IMG/VR virus record: IMGVR_UViG_3300010373_000634
Location: 1-43,061 of that record
Reading direction: 5' to 3' (one strand)
Origin: a virus
Length of the DNA: 43,061 nucleotides
The notes under the pieces were generated by a model. The model was not told the DNA's origin. It ran no database searches and saw nothing but the letters and a program-made list of their open reading frames with translations. Positions 1,761 through 23,019 of this stretch are shown piece after piece (position 1 is the first letter of the stretch; each line of letters opens with the position of its first letter). A program made the position numbers and the translations under genes.

Positions 1761-2086
1761 AACACACCACCGCCCGCGGCCTGCTCCGCGGCTGCCCGCT
1801 CGGCCACCGCAACCACCGCGGCGGTCTCCACGCGCGACGGGTGCGGCTGAAGCACCTTCAGGCCGCGGCGGCACGGCTGCCCGGGGGAGGCCTTGCAGAA
1901 CGGGCAGCGGACCTTCTCGGCGGCGATACGTGCGTCGCGACCGGGCCGGCCGGTGATCTCCGGGGGTGCGGGGCGTGTCGCGGCGCGTTCAGCGTCGAGG
2001 CGTGCGGCGGCCTGCTGGGCGCGTTCGTGCGCGGCGATGCTGGCTATGCCGGCGGCCATGCGGGCGCCGTCGCCCTGGCCGGTCAC
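1757..2086 (-). CDS. phage zinc-finger protein, 109 aa
   Basis: The C-terminal half contains CPFCKASPGQPCRRGLKVLQ followed by PHPSR, a CxxC-x(n)-C-x(n)-H pattern of the small zinc-finger domain common in actinophage early proteins. The N-terminal half is an Ala/Arg-rich helix. GTG 2086 overlaps the stop of the DnaB-like gene (GTGA). The same CxxCxAxPGxxC...H..R pattern occurs twice in the protein encoded at 2853-3587, so three copies of this finger lie within 2 kb. DNA or RNA binding is the likely activity, but the partner is unknown. Confidence 0.65.
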   Translation of the reverse strand: MTGQGDGARMAAGIASIAAHERAQQAAARLDAERAATRPAPPEITGRPGRDARIAAEKVRCPFCKASPGQPCRRGLKVLQPHPSRVETAAVVAVAERAAAEQAAGGGVL

Positions 2087-2853
2087 GAGGCACCGTCGCG
2101 GTGAAAACCGATGATGCGGTCGTACTCGGGCTGGATGCAGGCGGTCGTGCTGAACGCGACCCCGTTGCGGTGCTTGGCGACGACGATGTCGATCTCGCAG
2201 ACGCGGGGCGTGTTGCTGACCTGGTCGGGACGGTGAACCAGGATGACCGCGTCGGACGGCATCGTGTACGGGTCCCGGTAGTCGAAGTCGCGCAGGACAG
2301 GTTCGGCATCGGCCGGCCGTCCGGCACGGCCGGGAAGCGCTACGGAGACGACGACTGGAATTCCGGCGGTCATGGCCAGGCGCTTCAGCGCGCACGCCTG
2401 GATGTCGGCACGGTGCTCCGGGTCCTCGGGCGTCTCCTCGTCAGTCAGCAGGTGCGCGCCCTCGATGACGGCGAGCCGGGCACCGGTCTTTGCGACGTGC
2501 TCGGCGATCTGGGTAACGGTGAGCTTGTCAGCGTTGAGGAACAGCGGCGCCGCCTCCATACGGTCGGCGATCCGGGCAATGCGCGTCTCGTCGTCGGCGG
2601 TGAGCTTGTTGTTCGCCAGACGCGTCAGGGGAACGCCGGCCTGTGCCGCGATCAGGCGCTCCGCCATCTCCTGGATGCCGCTCCAGCAGCTGGTGAACAG
2701 GGTGGGGACGGCGTCGTTGACGGCGGCGTTCCTAGCGATGTTCGTAGCGAGGATGTCGGCGCCGTGGCCGAAGCGGCCCGCGATGACGATGAGGTTGCAG
2801 GGCTTGAGCAGCCGGTCCAGGTCTTTGAGGCCGGTGGGGATGATGTCGTTCAT
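2083..2853 (-). CDS. DnaB-like RecA-fold protein with degenerate ATPase motifs, 256 aa
   Basis: The order of segments follows the C-terminal RecA-like domain of DnaB helicases: IPTGLKDLDRLL at residues 5-16, the P-loop position at 26-33, a TLFTSCWSGIQEMAERLIAA block at 51-70, a Walker B-like RLAVIEGAHLL at 126-136, and VVVSVALPGRAG where the H motif normally sits. The catalytic residues are missing. The P-loop reads GRFGHGAD (Lys and Ser/Thr replaced by Ala32 and Asp33), the SLEMS-type glutamate block reads SCWSG, and Walker B ends in Glu131. It lacks the DnaB N-terminal domain. It follows the zinc-finger gene with a one-base TGATG overlap. Fold assignment is confident. A non-hydrolysing helicase adaptor or loader is inference. 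Confidence 0.75.
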   Translation of the reverse strand: MNDIIPTGLKDLDRLLKPCNLIVIAGRFGHGADILATNIARNAAVNDAVPTLFTSCWSGIQEMAERLIAAQAGVPLTRLANNKLTADDETRIARIADRMEAAPLFLNADKLTVTQIAEHVAKTGARLAVIEGAHLLTDEETPEDPEHRADIQACALKRLAMTAGIPVVVSVALPGRAGRPADAEPVLRDFDYRDPYTMPSDAVILVHRPDQVSNTPRVCEIDIVVAKHRNGVAFSTTACIQPEYDRIIGFHRDGAS

Positions 2854-3587
2854 CAGGCTCCTTCGGTGGCTCGGATGGCTTCGGCGGCGGCCTTGACACG
2901 GCCGGGGTGCGCGCCCGGGTACGGCTCGCCCATCTGGCGGCAGCCGTCACCCGGTGCGGCGTGGCATTCGGGGCAGGTGGCGATCTGCACGGCGTGCGCG
3001 TCGATGCGCATCGGGTGCGGCGCATGCATCGGCCTGCCGTTCTCGGTGGTGCAGCGGGCCCGCGGCTCGGCCGAGCACTTCGGGCAGCGCAGAGACCTGG
3101 GCCCGAAACGACGGTCGGCCGGCAGGTTGAACACCTTGGCGGGCATCCGCTTGGCTTCGGCGACGCCGGCAACAAGCGCGGCGACCGGGCGTTGCGACAG
3201 TTCCGCCGTGGAGTGCGCCGGGGCGTATCCGTTGCCGACGGCCGCGAGCTGCATGCGCAGCCGCTGTACGTACTGCGCGCCGGTTTCCTCCGGGTCGGGC
3301 TCGTACACGAAGTTCGCCTGCTCGAACCGCTTGTTCCTGATCTCGCGGACGAGCTCAATCAGCACCGGGGCGGTAAGGCGGAATCGCTCGGCCGGGGACT
3401 GCTTGGGCCAATGGATCGAGTAGTAGCGGGACACGGCGGCCAGGGCGTCGTCGTAGTTGACGCGGGCGACGTTGAGGTCGGTGTACCAGGCGGCGATGTC
3501 GGTGGCGCCGATGGTGCGCTGGTCGCGCATCGCCGCTTCCTTTAGGAGCCGGTTGGTTTCCTCGTCGGTGATGGTCTCGTGGGTCAT
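2853..3587 (-). CDS. early protein with two phage zinc fingers, 244 aa
   Basis: The N-terminal two thirds are helical (residues 1-150). One segment, TDIAAWYTDLNVARVNYDDA, is followed by HWPKQSPAERFRLTAPVLIE, resembling a small protein often found beside actinophage replication initiators. The C-terminal third holds two zinc fingers, CPKCSAEPRARC...HAPHPMR and CPECHAAPGDGCRQ...GAHPGR. The ATG at 3587 overlaps the initiator stop by ATGA. The position between initiator and DnaB-like protein suggests a replisome accessory factor; this is inferred from context only. Confidence 0.7.
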   Translation of the reverse strand: MTHETITDEETNRLLKEAAMRDQRTIGATDIAAWYTDLNVARVNYDDALAAVSRYYSIHWPKQSPAERFRLTAPVLIELVREIRNKRFEQANFVYEPDPEETGAQYVQRLRMQLAAVGNGYAPAHSTAELSQRPVAALVAGVAEAKRMPAKVFNLPADRRFGPRSLRCPKCSAEPRARCTTENGRPMHAPHPMRIDAHAVQIATCPECHAAPGDGCRQMGEPYPGAHPGRVKAAAEAIRATEGA

Positions 3588-4855
3588 GCGGTGCGTCCCG
3601 TTATGCGCCGGAACTCGGCCAGGGCGATGTCACCTGAGGCGACGGCGCGGTCGGTGGTGGATGGACGGGGTGCCGGGATGTTCGGGCGGATCGCGACGAC
3701 GTTGTCGCCGGAGTACGGCTCGACGACGGCACCAGCGGCGGAAAGCACGTCAACGGCGGCGTGGTTGCGGCGCCACTCGGCGTTCGCCTTCTGCCGGAGC
3801 TTTTCGTACTGCCGGCGGAACGTCGGCATGGAGTGGATGTTGGTGTGCCAGAACTCGTCGGCCTGGCACCACTCCAGCAGCGCCATGGCCTTGCCGAAAT
3901 CGCGCTTGTCCTTGTCGAGCAGCAGCCGGGCGGCGTCACGCCAGGCCTGGCTGATGTCGGGCGGGTTGCAGCCGTTGCCGACCATCAGCTCGACGAGGCG
4001 CGTGCAGAGGGCTTCGACGTCGGGGCGCGGTGTGCCGGGGTCCTGCTTCTGGGTCCGCTTCAACTTGGAGGCCTTCTGCTTGTCTGCGATCGGCGTAGCC
4101 GTCGCGGACGAAGAAGGTTCTTCTTTGGTAAGGGGAAGGGGGTAAGGGGAAAACGCGCGCGCGAGGGAACCCTTCCCGGAACCCTTCCCGGAACCCTTAG
4201 AAAGATGCTCCTCACCTGCGGCGTTGTCGTTATCCACAAGGGAGAGTGCGATCATGGAATCCTGGCGGATTTCGGACATGGCCCTTGTGGTGGCACCCTC
4301 GGAACCGTTGATTTCAGAAACGGGGCAATCTGGGTTAGCCGAAGGGTTCCCGGAAGGGTTCCCGGAACCCTTAGCGGAAGGGTTCGGCGAGGGATCCCCG
4401 GAGTTCGCACGGAGCCAGTCGATGACGCCGTGGTGGACCTTGCGGATCTCCGCGTTCATCCCCGACTCGTCTAGCCGCGTCAGTTCCGACAGCAGGACGG
4501 CGCGGATCGCCTTTGACTTCACCATGTAGATGTGGTCGATCGCCGACTTGTAGACGTTCGGCTGCTTGTACACGCCATCGCGGCGGATTAGCGACCGGAC
4601 CAGCAGTTCGAACCGCCGGCGGTCGGTGACGACGAACCGGGCGTCGTGTAGCTCGTTGAGCGCTGCGTCGGTCTGCTCATCGGTGTAGCCGATCATCTCC
4701 GCCCACAGCGGCGCACGCATGATGATCGTCCCCGCGTGGCTCAAGTCCTCCTGCGAGAGCAGGAAGGAGTAGACGTTCTTCGCCTCGGGGGTCAGTGCCA
4801 GGAAGTCGTTGTCATCCCAGATGCTGCAAAACAGGCGTCCGTGCGTGCGGGCCAT
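3584..4855 (-). CDS. replication initiator-like protein with embedded origin repeats, 423 aa
   Basis: Residues 1-125 look like the winged-helix initiator/replisome-organiser domain of Gram-positive phages (GRLFCSIWDDNDFLALTPEA, then HAGTIIMRAPLWAEMIGYT and LNELHDARFVV). Residues 150-285 are a low-complexity Gly/Ser/Asn/Pro/Lys linker containing NPSGNPSANP and KGSGKGSGKGS. Residues 285-423 form a helical domain (DISQAWRDAARLLLDKDKRD, FRRQYEKLRQ). The two peptide repeats are encoded by one 12-bp DNA unit read in opposite orientations, which points to selection on the DNA (see the origin feature). It is the first gene leftwards from the divergent region at 4856-5051. Binding of its own gene, as lambda O does, is inference. 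Confidence 0.8.
   Translation of the reverse strand: MARTHGRLFCSIWDDNDFLALTPEAKNVYSFLLSQEDLSHAGTIIMRAPLWAEMIGYTDEQTDAALNELHDARFVVTDRRRFELLVRSLIRRDGVYKQPNVYKSAIDHIYMVKSKAIRAVLLSELTRLDESGMNAEIRKVHHGVIDWLRANSGDPSPNPSAKGSGNPSGNPSANPDCPVSEINGSEGATTRAMSEIRQDSMIALSLVDNDNAAGEEHLSKGSGKGSGKGSLARAFSPYPLPLTKEEPSSSATATPIADKQKASKLKRTQKQDPGTPRPDVEALCTRLVELMVGNGCNPPDISQAWRDAARLLLDKDKRDFGKAMALLEWCQADEFWHTNIHSMPTFRRQYEKLRQKANAEWRRNHAAVDVLSAAGAVVEPYSGDNVVAIRPNIPAPRPSTTDRAVASGDIALAEFRRITGRTA
4110..4123. repeat. short inverted repeat GAAGAA-GG-TTCTTC
   Basis: A 6-bp inverted repeat with a 2-bp centre, 44 bp from iteron cluster 1 and inside the initiator gene. It may belong to the origin, but it is short enough to be chance. 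Confidence 0.3.
4167..4198 (+). repeat. iteron cluster 1, three direct copies of GAACCCTT at 12-bp spacing
   Basis: The unit is GAACCCTTCCCG, repeated in frame. On the coding (minus) strand it encodes the Lys-Gly-Ser-Gly repeat of the initiator linker. Confidence 0.85.
4230..4238 (+). promoter_or_regulatory. DnaA box TTATCCACA
   Basis: An exact match to the classical 9-bp DnaA binding consensus, midway between the two iteron clusters. In the protein it encodes part of the Leu-Val-Asp-Asn stretch. Confidence 0.6.
4342..4385 (-). repeat. iteron cluster 2, three AAGGGTTC and one inverted GAACCCTT
   Basis: Copies start at 4342, 4354 and 4378, with the inverted core at 4365-4372 between the second and third. 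Relative to cluster 1 the main orientation is reversed, and here the coding strand gives Gly-Asn-Pro-Ser repeats. Confidence 0.85.
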
Positions 4856-4975: not shown

Positions 4976-5028
4976 CTACGCCGTATATACAGAGATCCTA
5001 GCGCGTCAGGCGCTACGCTGTATATACA
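4976..5028. promoter_or_regulatory. two 16-bp operator-like repeats with TGTATATACA core in the divergent initiator/RHH region
   Basis: CTACGCCGTATATACA (4976-4991) and CTACGCTGTATATACA (5013-5028) differ at one base and are 37 bp apart. The second contains the perfect palindrome TGTATATACA. A weaker third copy, CTACGCTGTGTCTATG (5102-5117), overlaps an alternative start of the RHH gene. They are strikingly AT-rich in a GC-rich window and lie between the leftward initiator and the rightward RHH gene. They are therefore good candidates for autoregulatory operators that also overlap promoter -10 regions. The rest of 4856-5051 shows no gene. Confidence 0.6.
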
Positions 5029-5051: not shown

Positions 5052-5330
5052 ATGACCACGGCAATGGAGATCACGAACTGGACCGGCTGCGTGTGCAGTG
5101 CCTACGCTGTGTCTATGCAGCAGGACGACACGCCTGTGACCAGCGGCAAAGCCACGCCCGGACGCCTGATCCGCCTGACCGACGAGATGTGGGCTGACTA
5201 CGGCGAGGCGTGCGAAGCGATGGGCACCAACCGCTCCGACGACATCCGCCGGCACGTCGCGGCCACCATCGCCGCCCACAAGCGCGAGCTGCGCCGGATC
5301 GCCCGGGAGTCCGGGGCTGCCGAGTCCTGA
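5052..5330 (+). CDS. ribbon-helix-helix DNA-binding protein, 92 aa
   Basis: The core reads ATPGRLIRLTDEMWADYGEA then GTNRSDDIRRHVAATIAAH: a short beta strand with alternating side chains, followed by two helices, which is the CopG/Arc-type ribbon-helix-helix pattern. ATG 5052 has GGGGGA upstream. ATG 5115 (71 aa) is an equally possible start that would leave only the core, and a degenerate operator-like repeat overlaps it. It is transcribed away from the initiator, with two strong operator-like repeats in between, so it probably represses itself and the replication operon. It ends 47 bp before the convergent methyltransferase stop. Confidence 0.7.
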   Translation: MTTAMEITNWTGCVCSAYAVSMQQDDTPVTSGKATPGRLIRLTDEMWADYGEACEAMGTNRSDDIRRHVAATIAAHKRELRRIARESGAAES

Positions 5331-5377: not shown

Positions 5378-6589
5378 TCACGACAGGCTCCCGACCTGCG
5401 TTTTTGATGCGAACGGCAACTCGAACAGGGCGTCCTGAACAAGGTTTTCCGGAGCCACGGCAACAAGGCCGGGGACTTCTCCATCGCCGCGGATGGCGAG
5501 TTCGAACATGAGCGCGGCGAACGGCACGCTGGCGGGGAACTTGCCGTGGCACACGTTCCGGTAGGCAGTGCGGACGGCTTCGCGAACCACAGCATCATTA
5601 ATAACCTTGTACGGCGGGTTTCCGATGACGGCGTGGTAGGTGCCGCGGGCGAGGATGCCCGGGTAGTCTGCGGTGTCGTCGATGACCGTGCCGGGAGGGT
5701 TGGGGTCGTCGAGTCCGGCGAGCAGCGAGTTGCCGACGGCGATGCGGGGCCGCACCCATGCGGGGATGCGGTCCAGCCGTAGCGGCGTCACGCCGAGAAG
5801 TGCTCCGGCGAGGACGGTGAGCCGCAGGCGTGCGACGGCCGCGGTGAGCGGGTCGAGTTCGACGCCGTGGACGCCTTCGATGATGCGGCGCACGGACTGC
5901 TCGGCGGTGACCGGCGGCCGGCCGGGGACGCCCGCGGTGTAGAGCTGGTGTAGCCCGATTGACGCCCACACGAGTAGGTGCCCTGCACCTGCAGCGGGAT
6001 CGATGACGCGTAGCGTTCGATTCGGGAACGTACCGGCGGCCGGGGTGATGGTGCGTTCGCACAGGAGGTCGGCGACGAACCATGGCGTCTGGCAGAACGC
6101 GTTGCCTGCGATGCGGTCTCCGAACAGTCCTTGCAGCAGGTCGGCGACGATCCAGCCGGTGATGGACGCGGGCCCTTGGGCGGGGTTCGGGTATGCCAGG
6201 TCGGGTGCTTCGTTGGCCCACCAGTCCAGCAGGTCCGAGAGGGGTTCCCACGTCCAGGCGTCGTGTTCGGGCAGGGGGCTGTAGCGGGGGTCGAGCAGGC
6301 ATGCGGTCGATGGGTGTGCGCCGAGGCGGGCGTAGGCCCGGCGGATCCAGCCGGCGTTGGTGCCCCCGTCGCGCAGGTGCTCCTTGCGTGCTGCTGCGGC
6401 TTCGGCGCGCAGCGACTGCGGGATGAGGCCGTGGTCTTCGGCCCATGCGGCCATGACGGTGGCGAACACCCAGCCTGCGGCCTGCTGCCGCGGCATGTGC
6501 TTGGCGAGCGCATCGACATGGCGGATGAGTGCCTTGATGAGGGGCTGGTTGCTTTTGGCGTAGCCTTCGCCGGTGGTGATCGCGTCCAT
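5378..6589 (-). CDS. N6-adenine DNA methyltransferase, PglX/BREX-like, C-terminally truncated, 403 aa
   Basis: Motif I is VIDPAAGAGHLLVWA and motif IV is GNPPY, the gamma-type amino-methyltransferase arrangement. The acidic GVELDPLTAAVARLRL segment between them is the second SAM-pocket motif. The N-terminal region (SNQPLIKALIRHVDALAKHM and VMAAWAEDHGLIPQSL) and the post-NPPY part (YRNVCHGKFPASVPFAALMF) recall PglX-type enzymes. Those normally continue for several hundred residues with a target-recognition region; this protein stops about 75 residues after NPPY, at GSLS. No continuation is visible in the other frames before 5330. ATG 6589 shares one base with the upstream stop. A methyltransferase is certain; activity and specificity are not. 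Confidence 0.8.
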   Translation of the reverse strand: MDAITTGEGYAKSNQPLIKALIRHVDALAKHMPRQQAAGWVFATVMAAWAEDHGLIPQSLRAEAAAARKEHLRDGGTNAGWIRRAYARLGAHPSTACLLDPRYSPLPEHDAWTWEPLSDLLDWWANEAPDLAYPNPAQGPASITGWIVADLLQGLFGDRIAGNAFCQTPWFVADLLCERTITPAAGTFPNRTLRVIDPAAGAGHLLVWASIGLHQLYTAGVPGRPPVTAEQSVRRIIEGVHGVELDPLTAAVARLRLTVLAGALLGVTPLRLDRIPAWVRPRIAVGNSLLAGLDDPNPPGTVIDDTADYPGILARGTYHAVIGNPPYKVINDAVVREAVRTAYRNVCHGKFPASVPFAALMFELAIRGDGEVPGLVAVAPENLVQDALFELPFASKTQVGSLS

Positions 6590-7443
6590 CAGGCACCTGC
6601 CGTATCTGCTGCTGGGCGCCGGGCACCGCGCAGCAGTGCGTGAAGCGCTTGGCGGGTGATTCCGGCTTCTGCGGCCATGTCGCGCACGAGTTCGCCGGCG
6701 AGGTGCCGTTCGCGGATGTGCTGCACTTCGGATTCGGTCAGCCGACGGCGGCCGTCGGGTCCGGTGCCGGTGCGGCTCCATACCCGGCGGTCGCGGGTGG
6801 TTTCACGGCGCGGCGTTTCGGGGGAGTGCCATGCCTGCTTGAAGGTTTCCCGGGCCTTTTTCAGGCGCATGTCGAGCGCGCTCGCTTTGACCCCGAGCGC
6901 GTCGGCCGCGGCCTTGTAGTCGCCGAACGCTGCAACGGCGGTGACGGCTTCGGTCTGCTTGGGGGTCAGCAGCGGCATGATCTGGCGGACGGCGAAGCGT
7001 TCGACGATGCTGCTTTCTGGCGACGGGATGTTCGCTCCCGCGGCCCACCAGTAGCGTTCGAAGCTGGTGGTTGTACCACCGCCGCGTTCGGCCCTGTTGA
7101 CGCCGTGCTCGCGCATCTCTGCGACGACGAACTGGTGGTCGGCGAGCCATGCTTCGTTGACGAGGTCGTGAAACGGCGGCCGTTCCGTGGCGGCGTAGAG
7201 GTGTTCGAGGACGGCGAGGCGCGATACGGCAAAGCGTTCTTCGGCGTCGTTGGCGTGCCAGCCGTAGCTGCGGGCGATGCCGCTGCGCGCGGCTTGGTCG
7301 ATGTCGGCCAGGGTGTAGCCGTGCGTTGAGCCGGATGATCCCTGCGGATCTTGCGGGAGGTTGTGGGGCGCGTTCTCAATCGCCGTGGTCTTCCAGCCGA
7401 GGACTTGTGCCCGGGACGGAATGCTGTTGCGTGCGCGGCTCAT
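6589..7443 (-). CDS. sigma-like/HTH transcription regulator, 284 aa
   Basis: Residues 50-135 form a helical block with SYGWHANDAEERFAVSRLAV and SFERYWWAAG, reminiscent of sigma region 2 in position only. Residues 158-203 (PLLTPKQTEAVTAVAAFGDY, then KAAADALGVKASALDMRLKKA) match a sigma region 4-type helix-turn-helix. Residues 235-272 (LTESEVQHIRERHLAGELVR, then DMAAEAGITRQALHALLRG) form a second, resolvase-type HTH. ATG 7443 overlaps the DUF4326 stop by ATGA. It could steer host polymerase to phage promoters or be an early regulator; the sequence does not distinguish these. Confidence 0.65.
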   Translation of the reverse strand: MSRARNSIPSRAQVLGWKTTAIENAPHNLPQDPQGSSGSTHGYTLADIDQAARSGIARSYGWHANDAEERFAVSRLAVLEHLYAATERPPFHDLVNEAWLADHQFVVAEMREHGVNRAERGGGTTTSFERYWWAAGANIPSPESSIVERFAVRQIMPLLTPKQTEAVTAVAAFGDYKAAADALGVKASALDMRLKKARETFKQAWHSPETPRRETTRDRRVWSRTGTGPDGRRRLTESEVQHIRERHLAGELVRDMAAEAGITRQALHALLRGARRPAADTAGA

Positions 7444-10371: not shown

Positions 10372-11117
10372 GCGGCCTTCTCCCTGTCCTCGGCCGTGCG
10401 CGCCTCACGGCACGGCGCGCACACGGGCAAGATGCGCCGCTTGCGATGCCGGTCCCGCCCGCGTGGCGTACCGCAGGCCCCGGTCCAGTCGGGGAAGGTG
10501 CCCGGGTCGTCCATGTCGATGCCGTCCCAGTGGGCCGGCCGCGCCCAGTTCTCCCGCTCGCCACGCAGCCGGTTGCGGACGCTGGCGCCCGGATCCACGG
10601 ACAGCACCTGATAGGCGCGGGTGACGGCGTCAGCCGTGCGCCTGAGGACAATCTCGTTTGCGCCGGCGACGATGCGGGTGATGGTGACGTCGTCGATGCC
10701 GCCCGCGGTGGTGATGTCGGCGACGGCATGCCCGTCTGCGAGCAGGGCCCGCAACCGCCGCGTGGAGCCGGTGGCGTTGGTGAAGCCGCCGGGCTCTACG
10801 GCGGTGATGGCGAGAATCTTGTCGCGGGTGGCTTGGCGAATCTTGGTGCGCCGACCGGACAGGATCGCCCAGATCTGGCCGGGGGAGGTGTCGGCGGCGT
10901 CGGCGATGGACTGCTGGGTGGCGCCCTGGGCCAGAAGCGTGCGGATGTGGGCGACGGCCGGCGCCGGGTCGACGGTGAGTTTCCCGAATCGGCGGTGGCG
11001 CTTCTTGTAGCGCAGTTCGGGGGTGCGGCAGCAGTCTTCGCGGCAGCCGAGACGGTAGCCGCGGGATGTGCCGTGGTGGCCGTCCGTTGCGACGGGTGCG
11101 GTTGCCATGGCGGTCAT
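10368..11117 (-). CDS. helix-turn-helix DNA-binding protein, 249 aa
   Basis: The N terminus carries HGTSRGYRLGCREDCCRTPE followed by LRYKKRHRR, a Cys-containing basic motif common in actinophage HTH proteins. Residues about 60-100 form an HTH (TQQSIADAADTSPGQIWAIL) and a second HTH-like segment follows at about 125-160 (DITTAGGIDDVTITRIVAG). The C terminus has CGTPRGRDRHRKRRILPVCA, again Cys- and Arg-rich. ATG 11117 overlaps the methyltransferase stop by ATGA. It is probably a transcription regulator or DNA-organising protein. Confidence 0.65.
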   Translation of the reverse strand: MTAMATAPVATDGHHGTSRGYRLGCREDCCRTPELRYKKRHRRFGKLTVDPAPAVAHIRTLLAQGATQQSIADAADTSPGQIWAILSGRRTKIRQATRDKILAITAVEPGGFTNATGSTRRLRALLADGHAVADITTAGGIDDVTITRIVAGANEIVLRRTADAVTRAYQVLSVDPGASVRNRLRGERENWARPAHWDGIDMDDPGTFPDWTGACGTPRGRDRHRKRRILPVCAPCREARTAEDREKAA

Positions 11118-12820
11118 GCGGACACCGCCCGCTCCAGCTCCTCGCCGGTGATGGCCTCGACCAGCGCCGAGACGATCACCTCGGCCACGGCACCCACCAC
11201 CGCGTTCCCGTAGCCCCGGACCTGCGCCCGCTTCGAACCGAACGGCACCTTGAAGTCCGCGTCGAAACCCATCGCCGCCGCGATCTCGTGCGGCTCCAGC
11301 ATCCGGAACTCGAACGCGTCCAGGCCCATACCGGCGGCCACCGCGGCGGCCTCGGCGTCCAGCGCCACCCGGCCGGCCTCGCGCTCCGGGCCCTTCTTCA
11401 AGGCCTGCGCCTGGCGGTCCAGCTCTTCGATGCGTCCCACCGCCGCCATCACGGCCTGCGGGTCGAGCTGCACGGTGCCGCGCCCGAGGGCGTACCGGTC
11501 GACGGTGGAAAGCGTCCCGATGGGCTCCGTGACAGGCTTCGCGACCCCAGTGGAGTAGTAGGGGACGAGCATGTCGGGGGTGGTAACAAGGCCGTGGTGG
11601 TTGCCCGAGGCCGTCACCGCAGCCAGGGGGTCGGCGACCAGCGTCGGGGTGCGCATCGATCCGCCGCCGCGCAGGTTTGCTACAAACGGCGGCACCGCCA
11701 GCCCGGTCTCGTTCCGGCACGTCTGCGTCCGTGCGGGCTCGTGCGCAGGCCGCGCCTCCTTGCCGACCCGGCCCTCGACGGGCACCAGAAGCGGAGGCAC
11801 CGCCAGGCCGTCGGACTCCCGCGTGGTCCGCGCAGGCATCGGCTCGGTCACCGGCGTCGGCGCCTGCCGCCACGTACCCCCTGCGGGAGCCAGGACCGGG
11901 ATCCCGAACTTCACCGCACCCACACCGATCCGCGCCATCGTTTTCGGCGCCAGCGGATCGGCACGGTCTCCGATCCGCTGCGACGGCAGCGACCAGTCGA
12001 TGACCGTGGACGCGGCGTGCACCGCGGGCTCCACAATCTGTCCGCGGCACTCGTGCGACGGGCACCGGTACACGTACTGCTGCCGGTAGCGGCCCATGTC
12101 CACACCCGGCCGGGCCCACGTCTGGATCGCCTCGACCTGCTTGTCGCAGCGCGGGCACCACGCAACTGGGCGCAGCCACTTGTCCCAGTCGGGCGTGCGT
12201 CCCAGCGCCCTCAGCCAGTACGCCAGGTAGTGGCGGTCGCGAGACTGCGGGGCGCTGCGGGCCCGGACCGGGCGGGCGTGCATGGCGTTGAACGCGATCA
12301 GCTTCGTGTCGTAGCCGAGGTCGTGGAACTGGCGGCGCCACTGGTCGTAGCGGTGCCATTTGCGGACCTCGACGACGTTCTCCACGACGCCGGCCAGGAC
12401 CGGCTGGGAGGCGAGCCACTGGGCTTCCAGGTACCGGTGCACCTCGTCCATGAGCAGCCTGGACCGTTCGGCGTCCTCGTCGACTTCCGATTCCAGTCCG
12501 GGCAGCTGTTCGGCGTTGGCGCGGTCGAAGGTGCGGCGCACGCCCTTGGCGGTGGTCCAGTCCGGGCAGGCGGGGGAGGCCCAGAAGATGGCGCAGGGCA
12601 CGAATTTGGTGACGTCGTGGCGCTGGACGTCGCCGCAGAAGTGCTCGACGTCGGGGTGGTTCGCGCCGGACACGGCCAGGGCGTATTTGCTGTGGTTGGC
12701 GGCGAAGCGGCCCTGGACGCCGGGGACTTTGAGCATCCCGGACAGGGATCCGCCGAAGCCGCTGAATTCGTCGAAGACGTCGAGCGTTTCGCCGGCGCCG
12801 AGGGTGTTGAACGCGGTCAT
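11114..12820 (-). CDS. C5-cytosine DNA methyltransferase (Dcm-like), 568 aa
   Basis: The motifs appear in canonical order: motif I DVFDEFSGFGG (14-24), motif IV ASPACPDW with catalytic Cys85, motif VI ENV (147-149), motif VIII QSRDR (192-196), and at the C terminus LEPHEIAAAMGFDADF with the motif X-type GYGNAV. A long region of about 300 residues between motifs VIII and IX contains a zinc-like CPRC/CPSHEC pair and probably makes up the target-recognition domain. The modified base would protect the phage genome from restriction. ATG 12820 overlaps the RusA stop. The target sequence cannot be read from the protein. Confidence 0.88.
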   Translation of the reverse strand: MTAFNTLGAGETLDVFDEFSGFGGSLSGMLKVPGVQGRFAANHSKYALAVSGANHPDVEHFCGDVQRHDVTKFVPCAIFWASPACPDWTTAKGVRRTFDRANAEQLPGLESEVDEDAERSRLLMDEVHRYLEAQWLASQPVLAGVVENVVEVRKWHRYDQWRRQFHDLGYDTKLIAFNAMHARPVRARSAPQSRDRHYLAYWLRALGRTPDWDKWLRPVAWCPRCDKQVEAIQTWARPGVDMGRYRQQYVYRCPSHECRGQIVEPAVHAASTVIDWSLPSQRIGDRADPLAPKTMARIGVGAVKFGIPVLAPAGGTWRQAPTPVTEPMPARTTRESDGLAVPPLLVPVEGRVGKEARPAHEPARTQTCRNETGLAVPPFVANLRGGGSMRTPTLVADPLAAVTASGNHHGLVTTPDMLVPYYSTGVAKPVTEPIGTLSTVDRYALGRGTVQLDPQAVMAAVGRIEELDRQAQALKKGPEREAGRVALDAEAAAVAAGMGLDAFEFRMLEPHEIAAAMGFDADFKVPFGSKRAQVRGYGNAVVGAVAEVIVSALVEAITGEELERAVSA

Positions 12821-21555: not shown

Positions 21556-23019
21556 TCAGTACTTCCAGGCCAGGCCTACCCGTCCCGGCTCGATCACCCG
21601 CACGCCCTTAGCCCGCGCCGGATTCAACGTCACCCCCACCAGCAGCCGCAACGCCGCACGCCGCTGCGGCAGATCCATCGCCGCCCACACCTCCCGCACA
21701 TCCCCGGACGCCAGCGACACCAGCACCGGCGGCGCGGACGACTGCATCATCCGCTGGTTCTCCGCCTCGATCAGCGGCAGCAGCTCGGACTCCACCAGCG
21801 ACAGGCCGCCCACCGACAACTTCCGGGCCCGGAACAGCTCCTGCGCCTCGTCGATCTCCGCCTGGTACCCGGCGATCGCCGTCGCGGCCTTCGCCACCAC
21901 ATCGTCCCGGTCGTCCGGCTCCAGGGCCCGCGCGAACTCCGGCCGCTCCATGTACTTCAGCACCGCCAGCTCCACGAACCGCTCGAGCTTCCGCACCTCC
22001 ATCGACGTGCAGAACCCGCCGGTGCAGGTGTAGGCCAGCTGCTCCCGGTTGTGCCTGGGGCGCAGCACCGACCCGCAGTGGCACTTCGCGATCCCCGACA
22101 GCAGGTGCACGATCGCCGAGTCCCGCTGCGTGCGCCGCGCCGGATTCCCCAGGATCAGCTTGCACGCGTTGTACAGCGGCACCTCCAGGATCGGTTTCCA
22201 CACCGCGTCGCCGACGATCCGGCCGCGGTGCACCCGCTTGCCGACCACCGCCGGGTTCAGCACGATCTGGTTGATCGTCTGCGGGTCCCAGCCGCGCTTG
22301 GCGTTCCGTGGCGCCGGGATGCCGCGCTTCTGGAAGTCCTTCGCAATCGAATACGTGGTCTGGCCAGCCGCCACCCGCTTCGCGGCCTCCTTCAGGACCG
22401 CCGCCGTCGCGTCGTCCTCGATCTGCCACAGCAGGTCCCCGGTCCTCGGGTCGTACTCGCGCCGAAAGCCGTAGGGAATCTTGCCGTGGATCGCGCCGCG
22501 CTCCGCGCTCAGGCGCGTCGTGCGCAGGATCCGCTCCCGGATCTTCTCCGCCTCGTCTTCGGCGTCGACCGCGTCGCGGGTCAGGCGCTTCCAGTCCGAG
22601 CGCTTGCTCAGGTCGTAGACGTCGCCGTCGTAGCACAGCAGGATGCCGTTCTGAAGGCAGATGCGGCGAAGCTGCACGAATACCTCGAGGTCGCGGTAGC
22701 CGCGGGCGGCTTCCCAGAACACGATGACGTCGCACTCGCCGGCTTCGGAACGGGCCATCATCTCGTTCCAGTCGGGGCGGCTGCGCTTGGCATGCCGGGA
22801 TGCCGATCGGTCGGGGTCGGCGAACTCCCCGGCCACGTCCCAGTTGTTGTCGGCGCAAGTGCGGTGGTTCTCGGTTTGCTGGTCCCGCACGGAGGTGTTG
22901 CGCTTGCGGGGGTCGCGGGAGACGCGGGCGTAGATGAAGGCGCGAAGCCTGTGCCTGCGCTGGTCGGCCAGGGCGGCGTGTAGGACGCGGCGGTTCGGAG
23001 ACGCTTCCATGCATCTCAA
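21556..23019 (-). CDS. int: large serine integrase, 487 aa
   Basis: Residues 26-170 are the resolvase-type catalytic domain: FIYARVSRD with the catalytic Ser34, then TSVRDQQTENH and EAGECDVIVFWEAARGYRDL. The recombinase domain follows (GKIPYGFRREYDP and IAKDFQKRGIPAPRN), then the zinc ribbon CHCGSVLRPRHNREQLAYTC ending in CTGGFC, and a coiled-coil C-terminal region. The TTG at 23019 has GGAG eight bases upstream; an internal ATG at 23010 is the alternative. It catalyses directional attP x attB recombination. The length (487 aa) is at the compact end of phage serine integrases. Confidence 0.93.
   Translation of the reverse strand: MRCMEASPNRRVLHAALADQRRHRLRAFIYARVSRDPRKRNTSVRDQQTENHRTCADNNWDVAGEFADPDRSASRHAKRSRPDWNEMMARSEAGECDVIVFWEAARGYRDLEVFVQLRRICLQNGILLCYDGDVYDLSKRSDWKRLTRDAVDAEDEAEKIRERILRTTRLSAERGAIHGKIPYGFRREYDPRTGDLLWQIEDDATAAVLKEAAKRVAAGQTTYSIAKDFQKRGIPAPRNAKRGWDPQTINQIVLNPAVVGKRVHRGRIVGDAVWKPILEVPLYNACKLILGNPARRTQRDSAIVHLLSGIAKCHCGSVLRPRHNREQLAYTCTGGFCTSMEVRKLERFVELAVLKYMERPEFARALEPDDRDDVVAKAATAIAGYQAEIDEAQELFRARKLSVGGLSLVESELLPLIEAENQRMMQSSAPPVLVSLASGDVREVWAAMDLPQRRAALRLLVGVTLNPARAKGVRVIEPGRVGLAWKY

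What the first reader, a model, noticed from the sequence alone, without database searches (positions are those of the whole stretch)
4110..4385. Replication origin embedded in the initiator gene: iterons in both orientations around a DnaA box
Seen: seven copies of the 8-bp core GAACCCTT/AAGGGTTC in 220 bp, three at exact 12-bp spacing on one side and four on the other, with a perfect TTATCCACA at 4230-4238 between them. The two clusters are mainly in opposite orientation, so the same DNA unit encodes Lys-Gly-Ser-Gly in one place and Gly-Asn-Pro-Ser in the other. The peptide is not conserved but the DNA is, which argues for selection on the DNA. Known: lambda O and several plasmid initiators bind iterons inside or next to their own gene. 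Inference: the protein binds these repeats and recruits host DnaA.
Basis: partly seen in the sequence, partly recalled or inferred. Interest (0 to 1): 0.85.

Follow-up and report, generated by a model that had tools for sequence, protein, structure and literature searches.

The report
Phage replication origin inside initiator gene
The linker of a phage replication-initiator gene is built from short DNA repeats that recur in dozens of related actinobacterial phage genes and go with the protein's DNA-binding domain, so this stretch is very probably where the phage starts copying its DNA.

Summary
In detail: seven exact GAACCCTT/AAGGGTTC copies, the only ones in the 43-kb window, lie in the linker of initiator gene 3584-4855(-), at 12-bp spacing. 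The core claim (selection on DNA; an in-gene origin read by the protein's own N-terminal winged-helix domain) is well supported by comparison. In 57 relatives found by the N-domain alone, the 7-mer is 28 times denser inside the gene than outside, in the linker. It occurs in all six frame/orientation combinations. Sites sit centre-to-centre at 12 bp (20 genes) or 11 bp (17 genes) whatever their orientation; an 11-bp period cannot be a peptide repeat. Relatives sharing only the C-domain lack it (0/25 against 39/75). The site is a quasi-palindrome, GAA-CCC-TTC, so 'opposite orientation' is only a CCC-GGG swap on one lattice. The DnaA part is not supported: TTATCCACA is missing in the nearest relative and nearly all others. 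An adjoining 27-bp polypurine tract, conserved at codon third positions, is a candidate unwinding element. The architecture is that of RepA_N plasmids and lambda O; the actinophage iteron appears undescribed in the open literature searched. Verdict: new variant of a known kind. Binding and replication are untested.

The parts
3584..4855 (-). Replication initiator gene (423 aa): N-terminal winged-helix domain 1-150, iteron-encoded linker about 151-262, DnaD/O-like C-terminal domain about 278-380
   Evidence: phrog_3171 'replication initiation protein' E 5e-39 on residues 1-182; phrog_22834, DnaD-like phrog_2514 and O-like phrog_391 on about 257-365
4406..4855 (-). N-terminal winged-helix domain, presumed iteron reader
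   Evidence: AlphaFold2 pLDDT 96; best PDB matches are RepA_N initiator N-domains 4PQL/4PT7/5KBJ, Z 9.3-9.7, with CRP-type winged helices nearly as high; iterons travel with this domain
4341..4386 (.). Iteron cluster 1: four 12-bp units, centres 4345, 4357, 4369, 4381 (GGG, GGG, CCC, GGG on the + strand)
4166..4199 (.). Iteron cluster 2: three 12-bp units, centres 4171, 4183, 4195 (all CCC on the + strand)
   Evidence: third-position identity 0.93 with L169 over 4100-4201 against about 0.65 elsewhere
4301..4309 (+). Degenerate eighth iteron GGAACCGTT
   Evidence: one mismatch
4127..4153 (+). 27-bp polypurine tract GGTAAGGGGAAGGGGGTAAGGGGAAAA beside cluster 2; candidate unwinding or helicase-entry element
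   Evidence: near-invariant in L169; longest purine/pyrimidine tract in the linker exceeds the codon-shuffle null across 75 genes, mean 22.1 against 18.0, Wilcoxon P 4e-8
4110..4123 (.). Palindrome GAAGAAGGTTCTTC next to the polypurine tract, conserved in L169; role unknown
4230..4238 (+). TTATCCACA (DnaA-box match), probably incidental
   Evidence: present, not conserved
2853..3587 (-). Zinc-finger protein gene, next in the same operon
   Evidence: Pfam Phage_zn_bind_8 E 1.6e-13
2083..2853 (-). DnaB-like helicase (C-terminal domain only), last of the three replication genes
   Evidence: Pfam DnaB_C E 2.1e-27

Best explanation
The segment about 4110-4386 is the phage's replication origin, embedded in the linker of its own initiator gene. 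SHOWN computationally: a quasi-palindromic iteron GAA-CCC-TTC on a rigid 12-bp (sister lineages 11-bp) lattice, conserved as DNA, located between the two protein domains, and inherited together with the N-terminal winged-helix domain. INFERRED: the N-domain binds each unit cooperatively to build a nucleoprotein array; this strains or opens the neighbouring polypurine tract (4127-4153); the DnaD/O-like C-domain then brings in the DnaB-like helicase encoded two genes downstream. The peptide made from the iterons is a tolerant Gly/Ser/Asn/Pro linker. Host DnaA is not needed for the model.
For: 57 loci found by N-domain alone: 2.04 sites/kb in the gene against 0.074/kb outside, nearly all in the linker. 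Protein-blind search: 21 of 25 loci with 5 or more copies lie just after an N-domain, and 2 of the other 4 are cut by locus ends. C-only relatives 0/25 against 39/75. Lattice and frames. Centre triplet CCC/GGG in 117 of 132 GAANNNTTC. 158 sites against 32 expected over 75 genes under codon shuffling. Lattice period follows the N-domain tree: 6 changes against 17 in shuffles, minimum 13. Some relatives without this 7-mer have other repeats on a 12-bp lattice, e.g. ATACCCCAT, TTAGCCCCT. Fold and architecture resemble RepA_N.
Against: No binding, footprint or replication assay exists. Repeats could serve autoregulation or partition. 23 of 57 N-domain genes have no exact GAACCCT, and several of these (L190, L195-197; also L164 among the annotated phages) show no convincing repeat at all. 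The C-domain link to DnaD/O rests on profile hits; its model had no clear PDB match.
Confidence: 0.83

Rival explanations
1. Coding-level explanation: the repeats exist because the linker needs a repetitive Gly/Ser/Asn/Pro peptide.
For: In the 12-bp lattice a given orientation repeats the same peptide (KGSG, GNPS); flexible linkers are often repetitive.
Against: Sites occur in all six frame/orientation combinations, encoding NPS, KGS, EPF, EGF, GTL, RVR; the 11-bp lineage passes through all three frames; codon-shuffle null rejected; in Mufasa8 the iterons lie beyond the stop of the N-domain ORF.
Confidence: 0.03
2. The repeats are an autoregulatory or partition (centromere-like) site bound by the protein and not the origin.
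For: Initiator iterons often also control expression and copy number (own knowledge); binding alone would give the same conservation.
Against: Mid-gene position between DNA-binding and DnaD/O-like domains is that of known origins (lambda O; pSK41 Rep); a conserved polypurine tract adjoins. ParA/ParB genes were not sought specifically, so this is not excluded.
Confidence: 0.1
3. A lambda-like or chromosome-like origin that depends on host DnaA bound at TTATCCACA 4230-4238.
For: Perfect E. coli-type box between the clusters; 2 exact boxes in 75 linkers against 0.25 expected.
Against: Lost in the nearest relative L169, where two of the three cluster-2 iterons and the polypurine tract are kept; absent in 73 of 75 family linkers.
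Confidence: 0.1
4. The repeats are recombination junctions that let phages swap N- and C-terminal domains and have no replication role.
For: C-domains are indeed exchanged: 121 loci have the N-domain without this C-domain, 12 have both.
Against: A junction needs no exact 11- or 12-bp lattice, no centre-triplet constraint and no lineage-specific iteron variants.
Confidence: 0.04

Closest known systems
RepA_N plasmid initiators (pSK41/pTZ2162 Rep of staphylococci)
   Same: N-terminal winged-helix domain binds Rep boxes located centrally in its own gene; ori-encoded linker; DnaD-like C-domain; natural NTD+ori swaps such as pPR9 (PMC5703833); best PDB fold matches of the N-domain
   Different: No RepA_N Pfam hit, about 13% identity over the aligned fold; phage not plasmid; GC-rich 9-bp quasi-palindrome at 11/12-bp spacing instead of four Rep boxes with A+T tracts; helicase encoded in the operon
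Lambda O / ori-lambda
   Same: Iterons inside the initiator gene between DNA-binding and helicase-recruiting domains, followed by a strand-asymmetric tract (own knowledge of lambda); O-like profile hit in the C-domain
   Different: Lambda iterons are longer and all in one orientation (own knowledge); here an 11/12-bp lattice with either orientation; the phage brings a DnaB-like helicase, no P-like loader seen
Actinophage 'RepA-like replication initiator' genes (e.g. Gordonia APunk, Arthrobacter Mufasa8, Thermobifida P1312)
   Same: Same N-domain family and same iterons
   Different: Annotated only as HTH, RepA-like or hypothetical; no iterons reported in the open papers searched
Mycobacteriophage Miko/Jeeves RepA replicons (PMC7157519)
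   Same: Phage RepA-type origin; authors suspected the origin within or next to repA
   Different: They reported no repeated motifs; kinship of Miko RepA with this family was not tested here

Membership tests
phrog_3171 phage replication initiation proteins | Profile match over the N-terminal domain | tested here: met
   E 5.4e-39, residues 1-182
Iteron origin embedded in initiator gene (functional class) | Multiple ordered repeats beyond chance inside the gene | tested here: met
Iteron origin embedded in initiator gene (functional class) | Repeats are bound by the encoded initiator | not testable with these tools
   only co-inheritance with the N-domain shown
Iteron origin embedded in initiator gene (functional class) | Segment supports autonomous replication | not testable with these tools
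   needs an experiment
RepA_N (PF06970) | RepA_N Pfam domain | tested here: not met
   no hit at E 0.1
RepA_N (PF06970) | Winged-helix N-domain fold of 4PQL/4PT7/5KBJ | tested here: inconclusive
   best-ranked, Z 9.7 over 82 residues, but CRP-family winged helices reach Z 9.2; Foldseek E only 0.03
Lambda O | O-like helicase-recruiting C-domain | tested here: inconclusive
   phrog_391 'O-like' E 3e-11 and DnaD-like phrog_2514 E 2e-15; no structural match
Lambda O | Pfam O-protein family hit in the N-domain | tested here: not met
   none at E 0.1
DnaA-dependent origin | Conserved DnaA box | tested here: not met
   present here, absent in L169 and in 73 of 75 linkers

The most novel reading that the evidence does not exclude
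A widespread, undescribed class of phage origin: an orientation-indifferent GAA-CCC-TTC iteron on a rigid 11- or 12-bp lattice, read by a winged-helix domain whose lineages have changed both iteron sequence and lattice pitch, so that a protein-DNA recognition code can be read from sequence. Where two arrays occur they are often mirror images 90-150 bp apart (6 of 9 two-cluster genes), which could load two helicases in opposite directions.
Probability: 0.3. Interest if true: 0.75.

Novelty: new variant of a known kind. Interest (0 to 1): 0.6.

Why it matters
Origins of most actinobacterial phages are, as far as I know, unmapped; the one open experimental study of RepA-type mycobacterial prophages that I found reported no repeats. 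A fixed motif, spacing rule and domain partner give an immediate way to point to the origin in many sequenced phages, to build replicons from them, and to study how an initiator and its binding sites change together when both are written in the same DNA.

Tried and rejected
G-quadruplex motif beside the iterons: 36 of 75 genes against 22.6 expected under codon shuffling; not a convincing general feature. A general 7-bp second repeat: clear in L168, L205, L214, L218, weak in the window, z 1.6. DnaA box as a general part: rejected. N-domain alignment A1 was too diverse to search with; A2 was used. PDB sequence search with the N-domain profile gave only chance hits. C-domain fold search gave no match above Z 5.1. 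Low-GC loci with the pattern (L029, L083, L065) are repetitive-peptide genes or unrelated proteins. Two enterobacterial/Pasteurellaceae initiators of a neighbouring family had no such iterons. Megablast of 1-25000 against phages found only 41 bp in Mufasa8, which is part of the iteron array itself. Literature: no paper on this motif in the open library; subscription journals were not covered.

Full report
OBSERVATION. The gene 3584-4855(-) encodes a 423-aa protein. Its linker holds seven exact GAACCCTT/AAGGGTTC copies, the only ones in the window, and TTATCCACA at 4230-4238. A synonymous-codon shuffle that keeps the protein gives 1.7 copies on average and reaches seven in 0.04% of trials.

THE SITE. 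Aligned over 167 copies from 75 genes, the motif extends to GAACCCTTC with a weaker frame around it. GAACCCTTC and GAAGGGTTC are reverse complements, so flipping a site merely exchanges the central CCC and GGG. Within linkers 117 of 132 GAANNNTTC have exactly those centres. Measured centre to centre, neighbours are 12 bp apart in one set of genes (45 same-orientation and 36 opposite-orientation neighbours) and 11 bp apart in another (39 and 15). In this window the centres are 4171, 4183, 4195 and 4345, 4357, 4369, 4381.

DNA, NOT PEPTIDE. Across the family the exact site is found in all six frame/orientation combinations. Genes with the 11-bp lattice run through the reading frames, so no peptide repeat can explain them. 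In Arthrobacter phage Mufasa8 the N-domain ORF ends and the iterons (11 exact 7-mers, two arrays) lie beyond its stop. Between the window and its nearest relative L169, third codon positions agree in 93% of same-residue codons across cluster 2 and the block after it, against about 65% in the N- and C-domains (binomial P 0.001). Cluster 1 is less well kept in L169 (third-position identity 0.57, several sites with one or more mismatches).

WHICH DOMAIN GOES WITH THE REPEATS. Three routes agree. (a) Loci fetched with the N-domain only: 30 of 57 have two or more exact 7-mers in the gene, 2.04/kb inside against 0.074/kb outside, nearly all at about +410 to +680 from the start. (b) Loci fetched with the DNA pattern only: of those with five or more copies 21 of 25 lie directly after an N-domain. 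(c) Relatives that share only the C-domain: none of 25 has two sites, against 39 of 75 N-domain genes, Fisher P 5e-7. The sequences are related to each other, so these P values overstate independence. Some genes of (a) without the 7-mer carry other repeats on a 12-bp lattice (ATACCCCAT in L201/203/204; TTAGCCCCT in phage Shade); others, such as L164 and L195-197, show none that is convincing. Lattice pitch changes 6 times on the N-domain tree, against 17 on average for shuffled labels; the tree is short (140 columns) and many forks are unresolved.

PROTEIN. The N-domain is modelled with confidence (pLDDT 96) as a winged helix; the first PDB matches are the N-domains of RepA_N initiators, including the Rep-DNA complex 5KBJ (Z 9.3-9.7), with CRP-type winged helices close behind, so the fold shows a DNA-binding domain more surely than kinship. 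The C-domain matches DnaD-like and O-like PHROGs; its model (pLDDT 73) has no clear structural match. Downstream in the same orientation lie a zinc-finger gene and a DnaB-like helicase. A serine integrase (21556-23019) suggests a temperate phage.

MECHANISM. By analogy with pSK41 Rep, where the N-domain binds Rep boxes in the middle of its own gene, the ori-encoded middle of the protein is dispensable, and the C-domain is DnaD-like (PMC5703833), the likely order is: N-domain arrays on the iterons, opening of the adjacent polypurine tract 4127-4153, C-domain delivery of the helicase. The longest tract exceeds the codon-shuffle mean in 57 of 75 genes (P 4e-8), but that it melts is inference. Two-array genes put a mainly '+' array first and a mainly '-' array second in 6 of 9 cases, never the reverse; what that does is unknown.

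DnaA. The box is real but not shared: absent in L169 although neighbouring elements are kept, and in 73 of 75 linkers. Two where 0.25 is expected leaves a lineage-specific role possible.

KNOWN OR NEW. Origins inside initiator genes are known (lambda O, RepA_N). The open study of RepA-type mycobacterial prophage origins suspected such a place but reported no repeats (PMC7157519). No paper describing this iteron was found in the open library. I therefore file it as a new variant of a known kind.

SCOPE. The same iterons also occur in a second initiator family (L067, L096, L132; for L096 the N-domain matches phrog_25711 and phrog_1701 and only weakly phrog_3171), whereas two enterobacterial-type relatives had none. 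A Prescottella plasmid relative shows a 12-bp lattice with another unit (L229, by eye).

Noticed in passing
window 4976-4990 and 5013-5027: Two exact CTACGCYGTATATAC repeats, 37 bp apart, with palindromic GTATATAC cores, in the divergent intergenic region upstream of the initiator; 5 matches at up to 3 mismatches against 0.18 expected. Operator-like.
   Followed up: partly
window 5115-5330 (+): 71-aa ORF divergent from the initiator, no Pfam or PHROG hit; candidate small DNA-binding regulator of the operator-like repeats.
   Followed up: partly
L067, L096, L132: A second winged-helix initiator family ('KYRKIDPRIWNDEKF' type) carries the same GAACCCT units in its linker.
   Followed up: partly
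L168, L205, L214, L218 (linker of the initiator gene): Tandem 7-bp repeats (e.g. CCTCAAC, CCCCAAG/CCCCAGT) close to the expected iteron place; 7 is not a multiple of 3, so DNA-level selection is likely.
   Followed up: partly
L149 4447-4755 (Mufasa8 gene 50): Annotated 'hypothetical protein' overlaps the iteron arrays; probably a by-product of the origin DNA or a split linker.
   Followed up: no
L229 1501-2697 (Prescottella equi plasmid plas1): Plasmid initiator relative with a 12-bp lattice of another unit, GGTTNNCCCCGA/GGTTNNGGGGTC, seen by eye.
   Followed up: no
window 5378-6781 and 11114-12820 (-): Two DNA methyltransferase-like genes (Eco57I-like; phrog_116) near the replication module.
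   Followed up: no
window 4154-4163: (CG)5 run between cluster 2 and the polypurine tract, kept in L169.
   Followed up: no
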